Below the pieces are notes generated by a model, which did not search any database, had not been told where the DNA came from, and was given only the letters and a program-made list of their open reading frames with translations. Shown piece by piece: positions 2,443 through 53,559 of a DNA stretch of 64,000 bases. Source of the stretch: Pseudodesulfovibrio tunisiensis (lineage in GTDB: Bacteria; Desulfobacterota; Desulfovibrionia; Desulfovibrionales; Desulfovibrionaceae); assembly GCF_022809775.1 (NCBI RefSeq), contig NZ_CP094380.1, forward strand, positions 1,537,001 to 1,601,000, in the 5' to 3' direction. The translations under genes were made by a program, and so were the position numbers. Positions within the stretch are counted from its first letter, which is position 1, and each line of letters begins with the position of its first letter.

Positions 2443-2910
2443 TCAGAAATACACGAGCTTCTGGGGAGGCGTCTTGTCCGCAAAAAAGGCTTCAACCGCA
2501 GGACGATCCGCGGAACTGATCTTCAGGTCCGAGACATTGAGCACCGAAGGCAGCCCACCATAGGTCTTGAGTGCACGATCCATGAAATCCGCATCCACGA
2601 ACGCGGCCTTGATCTCGTAGACCCTGCCCCCCCATCCCACATGCAACCGCAGCAGCGGATCGCGCTCCGGGGCACGGGTTATGAGATTGCCGGTCCGCAC
2701 CAGAGTCTCCACGGCCTGCTCCGGAAACATCCCGGCCCAACGGCCCAGACTCTCCCCAAAGGCCGGCATCACCGCAAGATAATAGAGATGATCGATCTTG
2801 CAGGCCACGGACCTGCCGGGCACGTTGAGCAGCCATGGTTCATCGGCAAAGGCCCGCCCCAGCCCCTTTTGCAGCCTGTCGAGATTGGCAGTGTAGTCCT
2901 TGAGCGGCAT
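2443..2910 (-). CDS. Hypothetical protein
   Basis: The 155-residue protein starts at the ATG of MPLKDYTANL, preceded by a clear GGAGG; the open frame extends further upstream but without a ribosome site. It looks like a soluble cytoplasmic protein with no signal peptide, membrane helix or metal motif. The C-terminal half contains VGWGGRVYEIKAAFVDADFM. I do not recognise the family. It lies downstream of the lipoprotein gene at 2998 but is separated from it by a terminator, so it may have its own promoter. Confidence 0.7.
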   Translation of the reverse strand: MPLKDYTANLDRLQKGLGRAFADEPWLLNVPGRSVACKIDHLYYLAVMPAFGESLGRWAGMFPEQAVETLVRTGNLITRAPERDPLLRLHVGWGGRVYEIKAAFVDADFMDRALKTYGGLPSVLNVSDLKISSADRPAVEAFFADKTPPQKLVYF

Positions 2911-2962
2911 GTTTCCGCCTCCGGGCAGAAGTCCGGCGCATCCCGTTCGGGAAACGCAACAG

Positions 2963-2989
2963 AAAAAAACGCCCCGCAAAGCGGGGCGT
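2963..2989 (-). terminator. Intrinsic terminator of the lipoprotein gene
   Basis: ACGCCCCGC and GCGGGGCGT pair around a short loop. On the minus strand a run of seven T residues follows, directly after the lipoprotein gene stop at 2998. Confidence 0.9.
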
Positions 2990-2997
2990 CGGAACAG

Positions 2998-3462
2998 CTA
3001 CTTCCTGAAAAACGTATCCATGTATTTCCGGTACAGGGCGTCATCCACTTCCTTGCGAATCGCCGCGGCCTTTTCCTTGCCCACCGAAGGCTCAAGAGCC
3101 TTGAGACGTTCCGGAATGATGACCTGACAATATTCCGACCGGGCAATGGCATTGTTCGACGACCTTGCATCATTGTGGACGATCTGCCAGCAGATCACCT
3201 CACGGGCCGTGAAAAAGCTGCGGTACGCGCCGACATGATCGCCGCTCTCCTCCAGACATTGCGCCTTGAGATACTCGGCATAGGCAAGATCGAGCGCAAC
3301 CTTGGTATTGGCAATCGTTGCATCGAAATATTCCATGGCCCCGGCACAATCCCCCTGCTTGCGCAGTTTCGCGCCCCGGTCCAGATCCGTGATGTGGGTA
3401 CCGCACCCGAGCAGCCCCATGGTCAGCACTGTGCATACAGCAAGCATCAATATCCGTTTCAT
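2998..3462 (-). CDS. Small lipoprotein with TPR-like helices
   Basis: The 154-residue product begins MKRILMLAVC and has a hydrophobic signal ending in a lipobox, LLGC, with C20 as the lipidation site. The start is placed at this methionine because GGAG lies just upstream and the signal peptide begins there. The mature part is alpha-helical with a TPR-like stretch (GAKLRKQGDCAGAMEYFDA, then a second helix pair with AEYLKAQCLEESGDHVGAYR). It is probably anchored to the periplasmic face of a membrane. No named family is recognised; a scaffold or assembly role is a guess from the helical repeats. Confidence 0.75.
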   Translation of the reverse strand: MKRILMLAVCTVLTMGLLGCGTHITDLDRGAKLRKQGDCAGAMEYFDATIANTKVALDLAYAEYLKAQCLEESGDHVGAYRSFFTAREVICWQIVHNDARSSNNAIARSEYCQVIIPERLKALEPSVGKEKAAAIRKEVDDALYRKYMDTFFRK

Positions 3463-3569
3463 CACCATCTCCGTTTGGTCTTGTTCACAGAACGCACGTA
3501 GCAACGCTCACGATTTCTTACCGCATGCACAGGATGAAGTCCACAGGCTGGACGAAGTTCCCGACAGGA

Positions 3570-5219
3570 TCAGATATAGATGACCAGCGGGACCACCACG
3601 GGATCACGCTCCAGCACCTTGCGGAAGAAGCGGCGCAATGCGGACCGGATGCGCTCCTTGAGCTTTTCCGTGTCTCCGGGCGCAATGTTCTCGTGCACGT
3701 CCAGCACGATGCACTTGGCATCGTCCAGCACATGCATGTACTGCTGCTCGAACACGAACCCCTTGGACACGATGTCCGGGCCGACCGAGATTTCCCCGGT
3801 ATCCTCGTCCACCACGAGCAGCACGATGACCATGCCTTCCCCGGCCAGCAGCATGCGCTCCTTGAGCACGGTCTGCCCAACGTCGCCCACGCCCTTGCCA
3901 TCCACCAGAATCCGGGCAGCAGGGACCTCGTCCTCGAAACGGATGCCGTCCTCGTGAAAGGTCACGGGCTGGCCGTTCTCGATGACCAGAGCCCGTTCCG
4001 GGGCAACGCCGGACTCCACGGCCAGTCGCTGGTGCTTGACCAAATGCCGATATTCGCCGTGCACCGGAATGAAATACTTCGGCTTGACCGTTTCCAGCAT
4101 GAGCCGCAGCTCCTCGCTGTGCGCATGACCGGAGGCGTGAATGCCCTGCACCCGTTCGTAGAGCACTTCCGCGCCCAGCCGGTACAGATTGTTGATGACC
4201 TTGGTGATGGCCTTGACATTGCCCGGAATGAAACGCGAGGACAGGATCACCAGATCGCCGGGCCGAACCGCGAGCTGGCGGTGTTCGCCCTCGGAAATCC
4301 GGGACAGCGCAGCAAGGGGTTCGCCCTGTGACCCGGTCACCAGCAGCACTATCTGATTCTCGGCATAGCTCCCGGTCTGTTCCACCTCGATGAAGGTATC
4401 CGCAGGCACGCGCAGATGCCCCTGTTCCCGGGCCAACTCGATGTTCCGCATCAGGCTGCGGCCGGAGATGGCAACCTTGCGACCTTCGGCCTCGGCCAGA
4501 TCGAACACTTCCTGAATGCGCTGGATGTGACTGGAAAACAGGGAAACCAGAATGCGGCCCTTGGCCGTGCTGAAAATCTCGCGCAGGCTGGATTTGATCT
4601 CCCGTTCGGTCAGGGCAAAGCCGTCGCGCTCCACATTGGTGGAATCCGACAGCAGCAGGGTTGCCCCGGGTTCCGCAAAGCTCTTGAACGCCTGCATGTC
4701 CGTGGCATGACCGTCCAGCGGATTGCGGTCGATCTTGAAATCCCCGGTATGCACCACCCGCCCGGCCGGGGTTTCGATGCCCAGACCGTAGCCGTCAATG
4801 ATGGAATGACAGACCGGGATGAAGTTGAAGGCCATGTCGCCCAGTTCGATCCGTTCTCCGGGCTTGACCACGCGCAGATCGGCCCAGCGGTCCAGATCAC
4901 GTTCCTTCAGCTTGCTTTCCACAAGGCCGAGAGTGAATTTCGACCCGTACACGGGCACGTCCACGCTCTTGAGCAGCCACGGCAGCGCGCCGATATGATC
5001 CTCATGCCCGTGGGTCAGAACAATGCCCTTGAGCTTGTCCCGATTGTCCATCACCATGTCGAAACACGGGATCACCACGTCCACCCCGAACAAATAATCC
5101 TCGGGAAACATCAGGCCGCAGTCCACCATCACCATGGAGGTTTCCGTGGCGTAAAGCATACAGTTCATGCCGATTTCACCGAGTCCGCCCAGCGGATACA
5201 GCGTCAGTGGGGAAGCCAT
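3570..5219 (-). CDS. rnj: Ribonuclease J
   Basis: The 549-residue protein is a metallo-beta-lactamase/beta-CASP RNase J, which has 5'-3' exonuclease and endonuclease activity in mRNA decay and rRNA maturation. The N-terminus YPLGGLGEIGMN is typical of the family. The zinc motif THGHEDH places H70, H72, D74 and H75. The beta-CASP part contains GSQGEPLAALSRI, followed by the HASGHAHSEEL motif and the family C-terminal domain. Its length is the usual one. It starts at the base immediately after the plsC stop (5220), so the two genes form a tight unit. Zinc ligands and the signature motifs are all present. Confidence 0.93.
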   Translation of the reverse strand: MASPLTLYPLGGLGEIGMNCMLYATETSMVMVDCGLMFPEDYLFGVDVVIPCFDMVMDNRDKLKGIVLTHGHEDHIGALPWLLKSVDVPVYGSKFTLGLVESKLKERDLDRWADLRVVKPGERIELGDMAFNFIPVCHSIIDGYGLGIETPAGRVVHTGDFKIDRNPLDGHATDMQAFKSFAEPGATLLLSDSTNVERDGFALTEREIKSSLREIFSTAKGRILVSLFSSHIQRIQEVFDLAEAEGRKVAISGRSLMRNIELAREQGHLRVPADTFIEVEQTGSYAENQIVLLVTGSQGEPLAALSRISEGEHRQLAVRPGDLVILSSRFIPGNVKAITKVINNLYRLGAEVLYERVQGIHASGHAHSEELRLMLETVKPKYFIPVHGEYRHLVKHQRLAVESGVAPERALVIENGQPVTFHEDGIRFEDEVPAARILVDGKGVGDVGQTVLKERMLLAGEGMVIVLLVVDEDTGEISVGPDIVSKGFVFEQQYMHVLDDAKCIVLDVHENIAPGDTEKLKERIRSALRRFFRKVLERDPVVVPLVIYI

Positions 5220-23612: not shown

Positions 23613-23758
23613 GTATCCGTCTCCATACAAATTCGAAATTCAGACTCTCGGTCGCCCACGGCATACCCTATCCGCGGTGGTAGGGAAAGTGAAGTTTCCC
23701 AAGCCATCCCGGACGTGATGTGCTACGGGATATGAAAAGCCCCATAAAGGAGAGCACC

Positions 23759-25546
23759 ATGAAACGCACCTGCATCATAGCCACGGCAATCGGCCTGCTC
23801 ATGCTCGCGGCTGCGGCCTCGGCATGGGCCTGTACCACAATGATCGTCACCAGGGGAGCCAGCGCGGACGGCTCCATGATGGTGGCCCATTCGGACGACG
23901 ACGAGCTCGGAGACCAGCGGCTCATTCTCGTCCCCGGCAGAAAACAGGAAGGCAAACGGAAAATCTTCCATGAAAAGTACCGCTACCCCCGCTTTGTGAC
24001 CGATGATCGCGGGCCGGCCTACAACACGCCCGGCTTTGCCCCCACGGTCCCGGTGTACGAACTCCCCTACAAGGCCATCTGGAAAATCCTCGGTCATGAA
24101 GTGCCGCAGTCCTATGCCTATTACGACGGCAACTACGGCATCATGAACGAGCACAACCTGATGATGGGCGAGTGCACCAACGGCGCAAAGTACGAACCGA
24201 AATCCAACCCGAAGAAAAACGGCAATAATCCGCGCCGCATCTTCTACAGCTCGGAGCTTTCCCGCATCGCACTGGAAAACTGCAAAACCGCACGCGAAGC
24301 TGTCACGCTCATGGGCGGCCTGCTCGACGAGTACGGCTACTATTCCACGGGCGAGACCCTGCTTGTGGCGGATCAGGACGAGGCATGGGTGTTCGAGATG
24401 TGCGCCCTGCCCGATGCCACGCACCATTCCGCATGGGTTGCCAAGCGCGTTCCGGACGGCCATTTCTTCGTGGCTGCCAACGAATTCCGCATTCGCACGG
24501 TCATCAGGGACGATCCCGACAACTTCCTCTACTCCGAGCACCTGATCCCCGGCCTGAAGAAACTGGGCTGGTGGAACGAAAAAAAGGACGGCCCCATCGA
24601 CTGGTTGCGCGCGGTCAGCCCGGGCGAATACAATCACCCCTACTATTCCCTGCGCCGCGTATGGCGCGTGCTGGATCGGGTCAATCCCGATCTGGGCCTT
24701 TCCCCATGGGTCGAGGACGACTTCACCAAAGCCTACCCCTTTGCCGTCCGGCCCAAGGCCAAACTGACCCCGCACGATGTATTCGGCCTGTACCGCGACC
24801 ATTACGAAGGCACGCAGTTCGACATGACCAAGGGCGTTGCCGCCGGTCCCTATGGTGATCCGCACCGTTTTGTCGGTCCCTACGACGGCAATCAGAACGA
24901 CGTGACCGAGGACAAGAAGTATTACGGCGCATGGGAACGGGCCATCTCGGTCTTTTATCAGGGGTACACCTTCGTGTGCCAGACCCGTCCCAAGGCTCCC
25001 GAGTTCACGCGCGGACTGGTCTGGTTCGGCCCGGACGTGTCCTACACCACCTGCTTCACGCCGTTCTTTGCCAAGGCCTCGGCTCTGGCCGGAGCCTATC
25101 AGACAGGCTCGCCCCAGAAATACGACCCGGCCGCAGCGTGGTGGCGATTCAACCTGCTCGCCAACTGGTCGCGCCTCAACTTCGAGCGCATGACCAGAGT
25201 GGACATCCAGCCCGTGCAGCAGAAGCTTGAGCGCAAGGCCGAAGCCGAAATCCAGAAGCTGGACAAGCTGGTCGAAAACCAGTCCCCGGCCAACGCCCGC
25301 ACCCTGATCACGGAATTCGGCGCCAGCAACGCCATGCAGGTGCTGGCCCGCTGGCAGGACCTGACCTACACGCTGTTCGCCAAGTATTCGGACGGCTACA
25401 TCAACCTGCCCGACCTGCCCGACGGCCGGACCTACGCCACCCCGCCCCTTTCCGAAGGCGAAAAGGTCCGCATGATCGGCTACCCCTCCACATGGCTGGA
25501 CAAGACCGATTATCGAAACGGTCCAACAAGTTACGACATGAAGTAG
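23759..25546 (+). CDS. Exported C69-family dipeptidase (Ntn hydrolase)
   Basis: The 595-residue protein has a signal peptide (MKRTCIIATAIGLLMLAAAA) ending ASAWA, directly followed by C25 in CTTMIVTRG. In C69 peptidases a cysteine exposed by cleavage is the N-terminal nucleophile, which fits an autoprocessed, exported Ntn hydrolase. Other landmarks are VAHSDDDELGDQ, NEHNLMMGECTNGA and VVRP-like loops, typical of the dipeptidase A family. The start has AAAGGAGA upstream at 23746. Divergent mnmA lies about 150 bases upstream, and a perfect terminator follows at 25555. It probably acts on short peptides in the periplasm; the substrate is unknown. Confidence 0.88.
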   Translation: MKRTCIIATAIGLLMLAAAASAWACTTMIVTRGASADGSMMVAHSDDDELGDQRLILVPGRKQEGKRKIFHEKYRYPRFVTDDRGPAYNTPGFAPTVPVYELPYKAIWKILGHEVPQSYAYYDGNYGIMNEHNLMMGECTNGAKYEPKSNPKKNGNNPRRIFYSSELSRIALENCKTAREAVTLMGGLLDEYGYYSTGETLLVADQDEAWVFEMCALPDATHHSAWVAKRVPDGHFFVAANEFRIRTVIRDDPDNFLYSEHLIPGLKKLGWWNEKKDGPIDWLRAVSPGEYNHPYYSLRRVWRVLDRVNPDLGLSPWVEDDFTKAYPFAVRPKAKLTPHDVFGLYRDHYEGTQFDMTKGVAAGPYGDPHRFVGPYDGNQNDVTEDKKYYGAWERAISVFYQGYTFVCQTRPKAPEFTRGLVWFGPDVSYTTCFTPFFAKASALAGAYQTGSPQKYDPAAAWWRFNLLANWSRLNFERMTRVDIQPVQQKLERKAEAEIQKLDKLVENQSPANARTLITEFGASNAMQVLARWQDLTYTLFAKYSDGYINLPDLPDGRTYATPPLSEGEKVRMIGYPSTWLDKTDYRNGPTSYDMK

Positions 25547-25554
25547 CAGCAATG

Positions 25555-25582
25555 AAGGCCCGGAGCGATCCGGGCCTTTTTC
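25555..25582 (+). terminator. Terminator of the C69 dipeptidase gene
   Basis: AAGGCCCGGA and TCCGGGCCTT form a 10-bp stem around GCGA, followed by TTTTTC. It lies just before repeat array A. Confidence 0.9.
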
Positions 25583-25607
25583 TTCGAGAAAAAGGGAAAA
25601 AAGAAGG

Positions 25608-26149
25608 ACAGCCCCACTTCTTCAGGGCGCGTAGCCGCGCCGTTTTCGCCACAACATCCTGCTAGGGGAGGGTTTCGCCCTTCCCGGGCGAGTTCATTTT
25701 TTTGTTGGGGCAAAAAAATAAACGAAAAAAAGCCCCTTTGCACTGTGCTCCCGACTCCCTCGGGCAGGAACCAGTAACGCCCTCCCGCCGGGCGATTGCG
25801 ACGTTTCCTCCGGAAACCGCATCGCCCCGGCTTCGGTCGCTTCGACTGGTTCCAAGCCCTCGCGAGCCGAAATTCGATCACAGTAAGAGACAGTGTTCCG
25901 GGCGTGACGAGCTCCCCCGGCCTTGCCAACCTCCCACCGTTTCCCTTTGATCAAGGCATCCGTCCCAGTAGCGAACGCACGACAGAACAGCCTTGATCAA
26001 GTAGGAAACGCGCACGGCTGTGGCGGTCCCAAAAGGCGGCTTTTGATTACTTTTATCCGCCTTGGAATAAAAGTAATTCGCCCGGGAAGGGCGAAATCCC
26101 CACCAAACAAGATGGTAAAGCGCATACGGCGAATTGCTTCGCCCGGCAC
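25608..26149. repeat. Array A, unit 1
   Basis: The head has GGGGC/GCCCC stems around the A-rich loop, which carries one A fewer in its second run than other copies (AAACG then seven A). The tail hairpin is ATTACTTTTAT with ATAAAAGTAAT. Confidence 0.8.
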
Positions 26150-26709
26150 AGCCCCACCTCTTCAAGGCGCGTAGCCGCGCCGCCTTTGCCGTGCCATCCT
26201 GCAAGGTAAGGATTTCGCCCTTCCCGGGCGAGTTCATTTTTTTGTTGAGGCAAAAAAATAAACGAAAAAAAAGCCTCTACGCACTGTGCTCCCGACTCCC
26301 TCGGGCAGGAACCAGTAACGCCCTCCCGCCGGGCGATTGCGACGTTTCCTCCGGAAACCGCATCGCCCCGGCTTCGGTCGCTTCGACTGGTTCCAAGCCC
26401 TCGCGAGCCGAAATCCGATCTGAGTAAGGAATACTGTTCCGAGCGTGAGAGGTCGCCTCATCCCTACCAGGCTCCCTCGGCCCAACCAACCTTCCACCGT
26501 TTCCCTTTGATCAAGGCACCCGTTCCTGCGGCGGACGCACGGCAGACCAGCCTTGATCAAGTAGGAAACGCGCACGGCTGTGGCGGTCCCAAAAGGCGGC
26601 TTTTGCCAACTTTTACCCGCCTTGGCGTAAAAGTTGGTCGCCCGGGAAGGGCGAAATCCCCACCAAACAAGATGGTAAAGCGCATACGGCGAATTGCTTC
26701 GCCCGGCAC
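26150..26709. repeat. Array A, unit 2
   Basis: The head stem is GAGGC/GCCTC. The tail hairpin is CCAACTTTTAC with GTAAAAGTTGG. It is nearly identical to unit 3 over about 560 bp, indicating recent tandem duplication. Confidence 0.85.
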
Positions 26710-27270
26710 AGCCCCACCTCTTCAAGGCGCGTAGCCGCGCCGCCTTTGCCGTGCCATCCTGCAAGGTAAGGATTTCGCCCTTCTCCGGGCGAGTTCATTT
26801 TTTTGTTGAGGCAAAAAAATAAACGAAAAAAAAGCCTCTACGCACTGTGCTCCCGACTCCCTCGGGCAGGAACCAGTAACGCCCTCCCGCCGGGCGATTG
26901 CGACGTTTCCTCCGGAAACCGCATCGCCCCGGCTTCGGTCGCTTCGACTGGTTCCAAGCCCTCGCGAGCCGAAATCCGATCTGAGTAAGGAATACTGTTC
27001 CGAGCGTGAGAGGTCGCCTCATCCCTACCAGGCTCCCTCGGCCCAACCAACCTTCCACCGTTTCCCTTTGATCAAGGCACCCGTTCCTGCGGCGGACGCA
27101 CGGCAGACCAGCCTTGATCAAGTAGGAAACGCGCACGGCTGTGGCGGTCCCAAAAGGCGGCTTTTGCCAACTTTTACCCGCCTTGGCGTAAAAGTTGGTC
27201 GCCCGGGAAGGGCGAAATCTTCCCTCAAAAAGCTGGCGCGCAGTTGACGGCGAATTGCTTCGCCCGGCAC
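26710..27270. repeat. Array A, unit 3
   Basis: This is a copy of unit 2, with a one-base insertion near 26783 (TTCTCC for TTCCC). It diverges from unit 2 in the last 60 bases, after GAAGGGCGAAAT, where it resembles unit 4 instead. Confidence 0.85.
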
Positions 27271-27847
27271 AGCCCCCAAGCTGGCACAGCCCCACCTCTT
27301 CAAGGCGCGTAGCCGCGCCGCCTTTGCCGTGCCATCCTGCAAGGTAAGGATTTCGCCCTTCCCGGGCGAGTTCATTTTTTTGTTGAGGCAAAAAAATAAA
27401 CGAAAAAAAAGCCTCTACGCACTGTGCTCCCGACTCCCTCGGGCAGGAACCAGTAACGCCCTCCCGCCGGGCGATTGCGACGTTTCCTCCGGAAACCGCA
27501 TCGCCCCGGCTTCGGTCGCTTCGACTGGTTCCAAGCCCTCGCGAGCCGAAATTCGGTCACAGTAAGAGACAGTGTTCCAGATGTGAAAAGTCGCCTCGGC
27601 CCTACCGAACTCCCCCGGCCCAACCAACTCCCCACCGTTTCCCTTTGATCAAGGCTTCCGTCCCAGTAGCGAACGCACGACAGAACAGCCTTGATCAAGT
27701 AGGAAACGCGCACGGCTGTGGCGGTCCCAAAAGGCGGCTTTTGCCAACTTTTACCCGCCTTGGCGTAAAAGTTGGTCGCCCGGGAAGGGCGAAATCTTCC
27801 CTCAAAAAGCTGGCGCGCAGTCTACGGCGAATTGCTTCGCCCGGCAC
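27271..27847. repeat. Array A, unit 4
   Basis: The start has an extra AGCCCCCAAGCTGGC segment. The tail hairpin is the CCAACTTTTAC version. The unit runs out into the gatA terminator at 27875. Confidence 0.8.
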
Positions 27848-27874
27848 GGGTAACCAAGCTGGTGCAACTCCAAC

Positions 27875-27904
27875 AAAAAAGCCCTTTCCCGCAAGGGAAA
27901 GGGC
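27875..27904 (-). terminator. Terminator of gatC-gatA
   Basis: GCCCTTTCCC and GGGAAAGGGC pair around GCAA, with a T run on the minus strand. The same hairpin core recurs as the hisA terminator at 53585, at the same edge of the other array. Confidence 0.92.
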
Positions 27905-27933
27905 CGCTTCAAAACAATGCAAATATTGCGAAA

Positions 27934-29391
27934 CTACATTTCCGGAACCGGCATGGCTTCAAGGTTCCGTTCCAGACACTCGCCAACACCAAGCATGAGT
28001 TCCTCGCTGAAGGCGCGGCCCATGAACTGGAGGCCGACAGGCATCTTCGAATCCGCGCCGAGTCCCACGGGCAGACTCATGCCGGGCAGACCGGCAAGAT
28101 TGGCGGAAATGGTGAAGATGTCCATCAGATACATCTGGAGCGGATCGGCCTTGTCACCGGCCTTGAAGGCCACGGTGGGACAGACCGGCCCGGCGATCAG
28201 GTCGCACTGCTCGAACGCCTTGTCGAAATCCCGGCGCAGCAGACGACGCACCTGCGCGGCCTTGCGGTAGTAGGCATCGTAGTAGCCCGAGGACAGCACG
28301 TATGCGCCCATGATGATGCGGCGCTGCACCTCGTCGCCAAACCCTTCGGTGCGCGAACGGGTGTACATGTCGATGAGTTCCTCGGCATCCCTGTTCCGAT
28401 GGCCGTAACGTACGCCATCGAACCGGGACAGGTTGGAGGACGCCTCGGCCATGGCAATGATGTAATAGGTGGCGATGGCGTAGTCCGTGAGCTTCAGGGA
28501 CACCGGAACGGTCTTTGCGCCCAGCTCCTCGGCCTTGGCAATGGCGGCGCGGCATGCGTTCTCCACTTCGGGATCAAGCCCTTCGCCCCAGTATTCCTCG
28601 GGCAGGCCGATGGTCACGCCGTCCAGATTCCCGCGTCCGAGCGCGGCCAGATAATCCGGCACCGGACAATCCACGGACGTGGAATCCTTGGGATCATGCC
28701 CGGCAATGACCTGAAGCACGCGAGCCGCGTCCTCCACGCTGCGAGTCATGGGACCGATCTGGTCAAGGGAGGAGCCGTAGGCCACCATGCCGAACCGGGA
28801 AACCCGGCCATAGGTCGGCTTGAGGCCCACGATGCCGCAGAAGGACGCAGGCAGACGAATGGACCCGCCCGTGTCCGTGCCCAGTGCGGCAGGCACCTGA
28901 CAGGCAGCCACGGTCGCACCGGAACCGCCCGAGGAACCGCCGGGCACGCGATCCGTGTCCCATGGGTTCAGGGTGGTGTGAAACGCGGAATTCTCCGTGG
29001 AAGACCCCATGGCGAACTCGTCCATGTTTGCCTTGGCAATGCACACGGCCCCGGCCTCGCGCAATCTGGCGACCGAGGTGGCGTCATAGAACGGAACGAA
29101 ATTTTCCAGGATTTTCGAAGCGCAGGTCGTGGTCACGCCCTTGGTGGCAAGCAAATCCTTGAGCACCATGGGCACGCCCCAGAGCGGCTTGTCCGGATCG
29201 GGTCCGGCAGCGTCCATTTCGCGCGCCTGTTTCAGGGCCTCCTCGGCCTGCACGCTGATCAGCGCATGCACCTCGGGCTCAGTCGCCTCGATACGGTCCA
29301 GGCAGGCCCGGACAACCTGTTCCACAGTGACTTCGCGGGCAAGCAGGGCCTCGCGCAGCTCGGAAAGCGTCTTGGTATGAAGATCGGACAT
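27934..29391 (-). CDS. gatA: Glu-tRNA(Gln)/Asp-tRNA(Asn) amidotransferase subunit A
   Basis: The 485-residue protein is an amidase-signature enzyme that releases ammonia from glutamine for transamidation of mischarged tRNA. The Ser-cisSer-Lys triad lies in [10 protein letters not shown] (Lys), GSSTENSAF and [15 protein letters not shown]. The length and end ([15 protein letters not shown]) are typical. It lies 21 bases downstream of gatC. gatB is not adjacent and must be elsewhere. The gene faces array A. Confidence 0.95.
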
Positions 29392-51700: not shown

Positions 51701-51947
51701 CATGGCAAGTCCCCCCGGCCTACCCAACCTCCCACCGTTTCCCTTTGATCAAGGCATCCGTTCCTGCGGCAAACGCACGGCAGAATAGCCTTGATCAACT
51801 TGGAAACGCGCACGGCCGGGGCGATCCCCAAAGGCGGCTTTTGCATTCTTTTATCCACCTTGGAGTAAAAGGAGGTCGCCCGAGAAGGGCGAAATCTTCC
51901 CTTATCAAGTTGGTGCGCAGTATACGGCGAATTGCTTCGCCCGGCAC
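51701..51947. repeat. Array B, partial unit 0 (tail half)
   Basis: Only the tail half is present, beginning with CAAGTCCCCCCGGCC. Its tail hairpin (CATTCTTTTAT with GTAAAAGGAGG) pairs with one mismatch and two G-U pairs, the least perfect of all copies. Confidence 0.75.
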
Positions 51948-52525
51948 AGCCCGCCAAGTTGGCACAGCCCCACCTCTTCAGGGCGCGTAGCCGCGCCGTC
52001 TTTGCCGTGCCATCCGGCAAGGTGAGGGTTTCGCCCTTCCCGGGCGAGTTCATTTTTTTGTTGGGGCAAAAAAATAAACGAAAAAAAAGCCCCTTTGCAC
52101 TGTGCTCCCGACTCCCTCGGGCAGGAACCAGTAGCGCCCTTTCGCCGGGCGATTGCGACGTTTCCTCCGGAAACCGCATCGCCCCGGCTTCGGTCGCCTC
52201 GACTGGTTCCAAGCCCTCGCGAGCCGAAATCCGATCTGGGTAAGGAACAGTGTTCCTGATGTGAGAGGTCGCCCCGCCCCTACCAAGCTCCCCCGGCCCA
52301 ACCAACTTTCCACCGTTTCCCTTTGATCAAGACATCCGTTCCTGTGGCAAACGCACGGCAGAACAGCCTTGATCAAGTAGGAAACGCGCACGGCCGGGGC
52401 GATCCCAAAAGGCGGCTTTTGCATCCTTTTATCCGCCTTGGAATAAAAGGATGTCGCCCGAGAAGGGCGAAATCTTCACTGAACAAGCTGGCGCGCAGTA
52501 TACGGCGAATTGCTTCGCCCGGCAC
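51948..52525. repeat. Array B, unit 1
   Basis: The head stem is GGGGC/GCCCC, and the tail hairpin is CATCCTTTTAT/ATAAAAGGATG. The head is nearly identical to unit 2 over most of its length. Confidence 0.8.
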
Positions 52526-53102
52526 GGGTAACCAAGCTGGCACGGCCCCACCTCTTCAGGGCGCGTAGCCGCGCCGTCTTTGCCGTGCCATCCTGCAAGG
52601 TGAGGGTTTCGCCCTTCCCGGGCGAGTTCATTTTTTTGTTGGGGCAAAAAAATAAACGAAAAAAAAGCCCCTTTGCACTGTGCTCCCGACTCCCTCGGGC
52701 AGGAACCAGTAGCGCCCTTTCGCCGGGCGATTGCGACGTTTCCTCCGGAAACCGCATCGCCCCGGCTTCGGTCGCCTCGACTGGTTCCAAGCCCTCGCGA
52801 GCCGAAATCCGATCTGAGTAAGGAACAGTGTTCCTGATGTGAGAGGTCGCCCCGCCCCTACCAAGCTCCCCCGGCCCAACCAACCTTCCACCGTTTCCCT
52901 TTGATCAAGGCATCCGTCCCTGTGGCGGACGCACAGTAGACCAGCCTTGATCAAGTAGGAAACGCGCACGGCTGGGGCGGTCGATAAAAGGCGTTTTTTG
53001 CCTACTTTTGTTCGCCTTGAAACAAAAGTAGGTCGCCGGGGGAGGCGAAACATCCCCTTAAAAGCTGGTAAGGCGTGTCCGGCGAATTGCTTCGCCCGGC
53101 AC
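52526..53102. repeat. Array B, unit 2
   Basis: The tail hairpin is CCTACTTTTGTT with AACAAAAGTAGG, and the following stem is shortened to TCGCC/GGCGA. The last 120 bases thus differ in sequence but not in pairing from other units. Confidence 0.8.
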
Positions 53103-53559
53103 GGGTAACCAAGCTGGCACGGCCCCACCTCTTCAGGGCGCGTAGCCGCGCCGTCTTTGCCGTGCCATCCTGCTAGGGGAGGATTTCGCCCTTCCCGGGC
53201 GAGTTCATTTTTTTGTTGAGGCAAAAAAATAAACGAAAAAAAAGCCTCTTTGCACTGTGCTCCCGACTCCCTCGGGCAGGAATCCGATCTGTGTAAGGAA
53301 CACTGTTCCGGGCGTGACGAGCTCCCCCGGCCCAACCAACCTTCCACCGTTTCCCTTTGGTCAAGGCCTCCGTTCCTGCGGCAAACGCACGGCAGAATAG
53401 CCTTGATCAACTTGGAAACGCGCACGGCCGGGGCGATCCCAAAAGGCGGCTTTTGCATCCTTTTATCCGCCTTGGAATAAAAGGATGTCGCCCGAGAAGG
53501 GCGAAATCTTCACTGAACAAGCTGGCGCGCAGTATACGGCGAATTGCTTCGCCCGGCAC
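53103..53559. repeat. Array B, unit 3 (central domain deleted)
   Basis: The unit is about 120 bases short. After GGGCAGGAA it jumps to TCCGATCTGTG, losing the closed domain. Head and tail hairpins remain (GAGGC/GCCTC and CATCCTTTTAT/ATAAAAGGATG). Confidence 0.8.

What the first reader, a model, noticed from the sequence alone, without database searches (positions are those of the whole stretch)
25608..27847. Structured repeat family of unknown type, supported by compensatory changes
Seven units in two arrays share an 11-12 bp tail hairpin whose two arms change together. It is ATTACTTTTAT/ATAAAAGTAAT in A1, CCAACTTTTAC/GTAAAAGTTGG in A2-A4, CATCCTTTTAT/ATAAAAGGATG in B1 and B3, and CCTACTTTTGTT/AACAAAAGTAGG in B2. 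A second head stem is GGGGC/GCCCC in A1, B1 and B2 but GAGGC/GCCTC in A2-A4 and B3. Such paired change indicates selection for a fold. I know no named family with this unit; absence from my memory is not proof of novelty.
Basis: partly seen in the sequence, partly recalled or inferred. Interest (0 to 1): 0.9.

Follow-up and report, generated by a model that had tools for sequence, protein, structure and literature searches.

The report
Large folding DNA repeats between genes
These repeats belong to a family of large DNA elements, a few to dozens of copies per genome in one genus of sulfate-reducing bacteria, that can fold into knotted, probably three-stranded shapes; their folds look kept by selection, and I found no described family that fits them.

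Summary
Window 25608-27843 holds four tandem units and 51712-53555 three more plus a truncated one; the genome has 15 arrays with 33 near-full units. Each unit is an inverted pair of modules. A module starts with a small GC hairpin, then a T/A hairpin whose loop pairs with sequence just downstream (a pseudoknot), bridged by an A-rich linker that mirrors the hairpin's purine strand, as an intrastrand purine triplex would need. A model of this end finds 4-58 copies in 33 of 36 same-genus genomes (Pseudodesulfovibrio, inferred). Helices covary across species. In orthologous loci of two species the elements diverge 7-8% against about 25% at four-fold sites, and paired positions change less than half as often as unpaired ones. 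Copies are mostly inherited in place, avoid divergent gaps, and lie mostly on the origin half of the chromosome (78 of 88 loci, seven genomes). I read them as folded DNA landmarks or insulators, akin to E. coli intrastrand-triplex (PIT/TM_ECO) and BIME repeats but larger, modular and pseudoknotted. Fold and genomics are shown; triplex and function are inferred; an RNA role is not excluded.

The parts
25608..27843 (+). Array A: four tandem units (about 25608-26145, 26145-26705, 26705-27266, 27283-27843)
   Evidence: blastn of one unit
51712..53555 (+). Array B: truncated unit 51712-51943, full units 51961-52521 and 52539-53098, internally deleted unit 53116-53555
25692..25736 (+). Head pseudoknot of A1 (hairpin, A-rich linker, GCCCC partner of the loop)
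26033..26077 (-). Tail pseudoknot of A1, inverted relative to the head (ATTA class)
26232..26277 (+). Head pseudoknot of A2 (GCCTC)
26593..26637 (-). Tail pseudoknot of A2 (CCAA class)
26793..26838 (+). Head pseudoknot of A3 (GCCTC)
27154..27198 (-). Tail pseudoknot of A3 (CCAA class)
27370..27415 (+). Head pseudoknot of A4 (GCCTC)
27731..27775 (-). Tail pseudoknot of A4 (CCAA class)
52048..52093 (+). Head pseudoknot of B1 (GCCCC)
52409..52453 (-). Tail pseudoknot of B1 (CATC class)
52626..52671 (+). Head pseudoknot of B2 (GCCCC)
52988..53032 (-). Tail pseudoknot of B2 (CCTA class)
53203..53248 (+). Head pseudoknot of B3 (GCCTC)
53443..53487 (-). Tail pseudoknot of B3 (CATC class)
25674..25692 (+). 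Small GC hairpin in front of the head pseudoknot of A1 (same at 26214, 26774, 27352); with the T tract it looks like an intrinsic terminator
   Evidence: the region's total of 8 such sites is not clearly above shuffles (mean 6.4, sd 2.9)
23720..25546 (+). Flanking gene, peptidase family C69, converging on array A
   Evidence: Pfam PF03577
27934..29391 (-). Flanking gene, amidase (GatA-like), converging on array A
   Evidence: Pfam PF01425

Best explanation
The repeats are members of a genus-wide family of large extragenic DNA elements of Pseudodesulfovibrio. The element is an inverted pair of related modules, X and Y, which multiply in tandem either as XY units (this genome) or separately as X...X Y...Y (other species). 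Each module carries, in order, a short GC hairpin, a pseudoknotted hairpin and a long rod hairpin. When the strands open (negative supercoiling, the lagging strand, passing polymerases) each end can fold into a hairpin whose A-rich linker lies antiparallel along the hairpin's purine strand as a third strand and is locked by the loop-to-downstream helix: a pseudoknot-locked intrastrand purine triplex. Shown: the fold by covariation, constraint between two species, mostly in-place inheritance there, avoidance of divergent gaps, preference for convergent gaps in the own genome, and origin-side distribution. Inferred: that the folded form is DNA, that a triplex forms, and that it works as a topological or transcriptional boundary, needed most where gene dosage is high near the origin.
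For: 41 distinct 45-nt ends: 95.0% of cells paired against 40-59% when partners are slid; covariation score 0.553 against 0.173 (sd 0.012) in shuffles. Linker mirrors the stem: of 12 distinct ends with a G in the A tract of stem or linker, 9 have AAAAGAAA in the stem and its exact mirror AAAGAAAA in the linker, one has the symmetric AAAGAAA, two fit neither, and none has the direct copy; A-run lengths of stem and linker correlate, r = 0.73, n = 83. G051 against G024 orthologues: X 8.3%, Y 7.1% divergence against 9.4% for all other aligned (mostly coding) DNA (15 region pairs) and 24.8% at four-fold sites (14 pairs); paired positions 4.0%, unpaired 9.7%; 12 compensatory pairs against mean 2.9 and maximum 8 of 200 permutations. 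Wobble changes show no strand preference in the rods, 42 to 39, as DNA folding would give. 16 of 21 G051 regions have a G024 element at a collinear site and 3 more at a rearranged site. Own genome: 10 of 15 arrays between converging genes, an 11th with a CRISPR array in between, against 23 of 197 gaps of 40 bp or more in a 400-kb sample. Origin side: 78 of 88 loci in seven genomes, measured from the better-scoring dnaA, which coincides with the GC-skew switch in the three genomes checked (G000, G051, G024).
Against: No measurement of structure, transcription or protein binding. The mirror AAAGAAAA differs from a direct copy only by a one-base shift, so a shifted Watson-Crick exchange is not excluded. 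In the pseudoknots wobble leans to the pseudoknot strand (13 G-T against 4 A-C, mostly one terminal pair), which would also suit RNA. In G051 only 9 of 22 elements are between converging genes and 12 lie in same-direction gaps, though one only is divergent, so a convergent-gene boundary is not a general rule. A cruder first measure, whole intergenic gaps that hold an element, gave 11.3% divergence, but it includes missed genes and one badly aligned locus. Two same-genus genomes, G012 and G044, show no copy in any of three searches, so the element is dispensable. For the own genome alone the origin bias is 10 of 14 (p 0.09) or 11 of 15 (p 0.06). A-rich triplets are the weaker kind of purine triplex (recalled), and own tail tracts have four only.
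Confidence: 0.45

Rival explanations
1. RNA reading: each module works as transcribed RNA, for example as a two-way terminator or RNA-stabilising 3' structure. The GC hairpin and T tract stop transcription, and the H-type pseudoknot with A-rich loop 3 protects the RNA end.
For: Small GC hairpin followed by a T tract is scored terminator-like at 5 module starts in array A; H-type pseudoknots with A-rich loop 3 are a known RNA fold (recalled); many own arrays lie at gene 3' ends between converging genes; G-T exceeds A-C in the pseudoknot pairs, 13 to 4.
Against: A terminator-like hairpin follows the right-hand gene of array A and one is readable after the left-hand gene, so the genes do not need the array for that; wobble symmetric in the rod hairpins, 42 to 39; in the 12 same-direction gaps of G051 the element's orientation is mixed relative to the genes; terminator-like count not clearly above shuffles (8 against mean 6.4); no promoter-like site, but chance expects 0.6.
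Confidence: 0.25
2. Non-autonomous mobile element (MITE- or REPIN-like) that spreads with the help of a transposase supplied in trans; inverted ends are its recognition sites.
For: Inverted, hairpin-bearing ends; up to dozens of copies per genome with species-specific sequence; no pseudoknot hit beside gatA in 29 other same-genus loci, one of which (L151) ends 78 bp past the gene and says nothing.
Against: 19 of 21 G051 regions share the element's site with G024 and no clear gain was seen; the one empty site (L224 against G024) is best read as a loss, because G050 carries a shorter element there. No Y1 transposase in the own genome, and 19 of the 33 model-positive genomes have none. No autonomous copy seen: two widely spaced end pairs enclosed a kinase/phosphatase-like pair and a dGTPase-like gene by eye. 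No hits in phages, plasmids or viral contigs with the queries used. Other transposase types were not profiled.
Confidence: 0.2
3. Selectively neutral, self-amplifying palindromes: tandem duplication and gene conversion keep arms complementary by template switching, without any host function.
For: Tandem copy number differs between orthologous sites; arm classes in the own genome change as blocks; rearrangement breakpoints fall on elements.
Against: For the one G051 element used as query, the G024 orthologue is about 90% alike while G051 paralogue hits over 700 bp are 79-88% (shorter hits reach 93%), so conversion does not dominate; divergence is about a third of that at four-fold sites; the origin-side bias is hard to get from neutrality alone.
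Confidence: 0.1

Closest known systems
Intrastrand triplex motifs of enterobacteria (PIT elements, TM_ECO; Holder et al. 2015, PMC4666352)
   Same: Y-loop-R-loop-R purine-motif order, intergenic, multicopy, inverted pairs of two types (five pairs in E. coli K-12), clustered on the origin side in K-12, linked to rearrangement (abstract, passages and sections 16 and 18 read)
   Different: TM_ECO is a 37-nt G/C-rich motif with 9-nt stems and short loops; the authors did not see its origin bias in other strains or bacteria. Here the tract is A-rich, the third strand is followed by a helix with the loop (the word pseudoknot does not occur in that paper's main text), and the motif is the end of 370-560-bp modules or units
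REP/BIME repeats and their RAYT transposases
   Same: Extragenic palindromes in alternating orientation (abstracts in the listing); tandem arrays favoured at gene 3' ends (recalled)
   Different: REPs are 20-40 bp (abstract of PMC3733652, listing); here the unit is 370-560 bp, and no Y1/RAYT transposase is in the own genome
Large structured bacterial RNAs (OLE, GOLLD, ROOL, HEARO; recalled)
   Same: Size and multi-branched fold
   Different: No Rfam 15 match; inverted symmetric ends and dispersed tandem copies
MITEs (recalled)
   Same: Inverted ends, many copies without genes
   Different: Copies mostly stay in place between G051 and G024; no recognised transposase; ends are pseudoknots rather than plain terminal repeats

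Membership tests
Intrastrand triplex (PIT/TM_ECO) motifs | Y tract, loop, R tract, loop, mirror R tract in one strand, within the published finder's sizes | tested here: inconclusive
   Order and mirror are met (exact mirror in 9 of 12 G-interrupted ends, A-run r = 0.73); sizes are not fully: own tail tract has 4 triplets against a minimum of 6, and head loop 1 is longer than the 6-nt limit (limits)
Intrastrand triplex (PIT/TM_ECO) motifs | TM_ECO consensus CCCTCNCCC...GGGNGAGGG...GGGNGAGGG | tested here: not met
   The ends listed are A/T-rich in the tract; none shows this consensus by eye
Intrastrand triplex (PIT/TM_ECO) motifs | Triplex formed in vitro | not testable with these tools
   No biophysics available
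REP/BIME | 20-40 bp palindrome as repeat unit | tested here: not met
   Unit about 540-580 bp, tandem period about 360-380 bp for modules in other species
REP/BIME | Associated RAYT (Y1) transposase in the genome | tested here: not met
   0 Y1_Tnp hits in G000; 17 of 36 same-genus genomes have one, including the three that the end model does not hit
Known Rfam RNA family | Covariance-model match at gathering score | tested here: not met
   Only a tRNA in the window; permissive scan of 25500-28000 gave 7 hits below gathering scores
Transcribed ncRNA | Strand-specific wobble tolerance in stems | tested here: inconclusive
   Rods 42 to 39; pseudoknots 13 to 4
MITE / non-autonomous transposon | Insertion polymorphism with target duplication | tested here: inconclusive
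   One filled/empty difference among 21 G051 regions, best read as a loss; target duplications were not tested further
MITE / non-autonomous transposon | Autonomous partner or transposase with matching ends | tested here: inconclusive
   Only the Y1 family profiled; two long end pairs inspected

The most novel reading that the evidence does not exclude
A bacterial genus marks the origin side of its chromosome with tens of large DNA elements whose function depends on single-stranded DNA folding into a pseudoknot-locked triple helix, kept by selection for base pairing, as a chromosome-organising or insulating system. It would be a genus-wide DNA pseudoknot supported by covariation.
Probability: 0.25. 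Interest if true: 0.9.

Novelty: new variant of a known kind. Interest (0 to 1): 0.66.

Why it matters
Intrastrand triplex repeats in E. coli have no assigned function (PMC4666352, sections 16 and 18). Here is a family with similar logic but with covariation across many species, measurable constraint, positions shared between species and a strong chromosomal address, so the question whether bacteria select for folded DNA becomes testable. If the fold acts as RNA instead, it is a large unrecognised structured RNA module present many times per genome.

Tried and rejected
RAYT/Y1-driven REPIN: own genome has no Y1 transposase and presence does not track elements. Conserved cis element of gatA: 0 of 29 other gatA loci (L137-L165, of 35 other genomes with a match) have a pseudoknot hit in the fetched flank of up to 1.5 kb; L151 has only 78 bp there, and the finder sees one geometry only. 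Autonomous copy with a gene inside: L129 and L113 inspected, no transposase seen by eye in the translated frames. Replication-strand orientation: own arrays are on both strands, no pattern by eye. Viral, phage, plasmid origin: two exact patterns in viral contigs and distant blastn with one unit gave nothing; these queries would miss diverged copies. Literature: searches showed no paper that describes this element in the listings; only PMC4666352 (parts) and one 'find' in PMC12306157 were opened; subscription papers are not held. First G051 gene calls with the own codon table were unreliable and gave 7 convergent of 22, so the table was retrained, giving 9 of 22.

Limits of the counts. The pseudoknot finder demands an A-rich linker and a Watson-Crick loop partner, and A1 was picked for at least 9 of 11 and 5 of 7 pairs, so the 95% leans upward; the 33 own units and the orthologue test were not chosen by pairing, though one search counts only pairs predicted on both strands and Watson-Crick in G051. 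Four-fold divergence per locus ranges 0.13-0.37 and includes one badly aligned locus, L211. Copy numbers are lower bounds (150 candidates scored per genome; one end geometry): G011 has no model hit but 10 blastn matches. Positions for searches were copied by hand from lists cut off by E-value; a first set gave 132 of 147 loci in 12 genomes; in all but three genomes the origin is taken from dnaA without a skew check; related genomes share loci by descent, so pooled p-values overstate.

Odds left as they were.

Full report
What is in the window. Array A (25608-27843) has four tandem units and array B (51712-53555) three, plus a 5'-truncated copy. The unit search of the whole genome (3.61 Mb, one contig) gives hits that I group into 15 arrays with 33 near-full units, 85-97% identical to the A2 unit. 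Both strands of one unit fold far better than shuffles. Rfam has no match.

Anatomy. Each unit has two ends in inverted orientation. Each end has a small GC hairpin, then a hairpin with a T-rich 5' arm and A-rich 3' arm, an A-rich linker, and a short stretch that pairs with the hairpin loop. That is an H-type pseudoknot: GAGGC or GGGGC with GCCTC or GCCCC at the head, AAGGCGG with CCGCCTT at the tail. The finder for this arrangement hits 14 places in the window, all in the arrays, and none in three shuffled windows. In other species the two halves, X and Y, repeat separately (for example four X then two Y in L166; the finder marks only one of the two Y ends), so the module, not the 560-bp unit, is the building block.

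Covariation. Across 41 distinct 45-nt ends, seven of eleven stem pairs and five of seven loop-partner pairs change on both sides; the covariation score is 0.553 against 0.173 in shuffles, and sliding partners drops pairing from 95.0% to at most 59.1%. These ends were chosen for pairing, so I also tested orthologous loci of two other species that were chosen by sequence alone: 12 compensatory double changes in 1759 pairs against a permuted mean of 2.9 (maximum 8 of 200), and 4.0% substitutions at paired against 9.7% at unpaired positions.

A third strand. Of 12 distinct ends with a G in the A tract, 9 have AAAAGAAA in the stem's purine strand and its exact mirror AAAGAAAA in the linker, one has the symmetric AAAGAAA, two fit neither, and none has the direct copy; the longest A runs of stem and linker correlate (r = 0.73, n = 83). 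A direct copy would suit strand exchange; a mirror copy is what an antiparallel purine third strand requires (established for purine-motif triplexes; here inferred from sequence only). Mirror and direct copy differ by a one-base shift, so the point needs biophysics.

Who has it. A covariance model of the 45-nt end finds 4-58 matches (E up to 0.01) in 33 of 36 same-genus genomes; the three without are G044, G012 and G011, but G011 has 10 blastn matches to another species' unit, so G044 and G012 alone are blank. Among 199 genomes sampled from the order, 24 have a hit at E up to 0.001: 22 of the 25 listed as same genus, and two single hits among the other 174. A narrow pattern scan of named genomes hit only Pseudodesulfovibrio MAGs (25 stretches from four isolates). 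G012 has the chromosome and plasmid lengths that the abstract of PMC5668535 gives for Desulfovibrio profundus 500-1 (abstract start; lengths), so the genus is Pseudodesulfovibrio by inference.

Mobility and constraint. No pseudoknot hit lies in the fetched flank of gatA in 29 other same-genus loci, 28 of them informative, so array A is probably not ancient. Yet between G051 and G024, 16 of 21 fetched regions have the element at a collinear site, 3 more have it at a site where flanks are rearranged, one is empty in G024 but filled by a shorter element in G050 (best read as a loss), and one is an apparent 44-49 kb deletion in G051 between two elements. One rearrangement joins sites about 730 kb on either side of the origin. 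The elements diverge 7.1% (Y) and 8.3% (X) against 9.4% for other aligned DNA and 24.8% at four-fold sites; a cruder measure over whole element-bearing gaps gave 11.3%. So copies are mostly inherited and constrained, not actively jumping in this clade.

Where they sit. In the own genome 10 of 15 arrays lie between converging genes, and an eleventh has a CRISPR array in between, against 23 of 197 sampled gaps. In G051 the preference is weaker, 9 of 22 against 18 of 116 other gaps, with one in a divergent gap against 34 of 116. GC skew switches from negative to positive at the better-scoring of two DnaA genes in the own genome, and samples of G051 and G024 agree, so I take this gene as the origin in all genomes. 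In seven genomes 78 of 88 loci lie in the origin-side half and none in the last fifth towards the terminus; a first set of 12 genomes gave 132 of 147. For the own genome alone the bias is suggestive only.

DNA or RNA. Single changes in rod pairs that give G-U on the module strand and those that give A-C are about equal, 42 to 39, which argues against strand-specific RNA selection there; in the pseudoknot pairs G-T leads 13 to 4, mostly at one terminal pair. The GC hairpin plus T tract is terminator-like, and a crude scan found no promoter-like site, where chance expects 0.6. In same-direction gaps of G051 orientation is mixed. I therefore prefer folded DNA, with RNA as the main rival.

Relation to known things. 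The nearest published kind is the intrastrand triplex motif of E. coli, intergenic, in inverted pairs of two types, and on the origin side in K-12 (PMC4666352; abstract, passages, sections 16 and 18 read). It shares the logic, not the sequence, size, modular build or pseudoknot. REP/BIME repeats share the inverted arrangement but fail on unit size and on the transposase.

Verdict. Observation confirmed; selection for a fold supported by independent data; type: a new, large, pseudoknotted variant of extragenic triplex-forming repeats. Mechanism remains inferred.

Noticed in passing
L044 (array 2927-3948) and L046 (array 2817-3608), own genome 3.20 and 3.50 Mb: Two of the 15 arrays follow CRISPR-like repeats (GTGTTCCCC...GGGGATGAACCG); type I-E is recalled, not tested.
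   Followed up: no
G000 2570355 and 206428; 13 same-genus genomes: Each of 13 genomes has two DnaA homologues, about 1.15-1.53 Mb apart; GC skew in the own genome puts the origin at the better-scoring one, while two records (G024, G045) start near the other.
   Followed up: partly
L214, L217 (G051) against L231, L248 (G024); L219 against L246, L242: Rearrangements between close species have their breakpoints on these elements; one pair of sites is symmetric about the origin.
   Followed up: partly
window 51712-51943: The truncated copy at the start of array B has lost part of the pairing in its tail hairpin and loop partner (by eye), as expected for a copy released from constraint.
   Followed up: no
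G172 and G058: Single model hits outside the genus (E about 1e-5 and 4e-5); could be chance or solitary relatives.
   Followed up: no
window 25674-25692 and equivalents: Module start (GC hairpin plus T tract) resembles an intrinsic terminator; in an XY pair this would stop transcription from both sides.
   Followed up: partly
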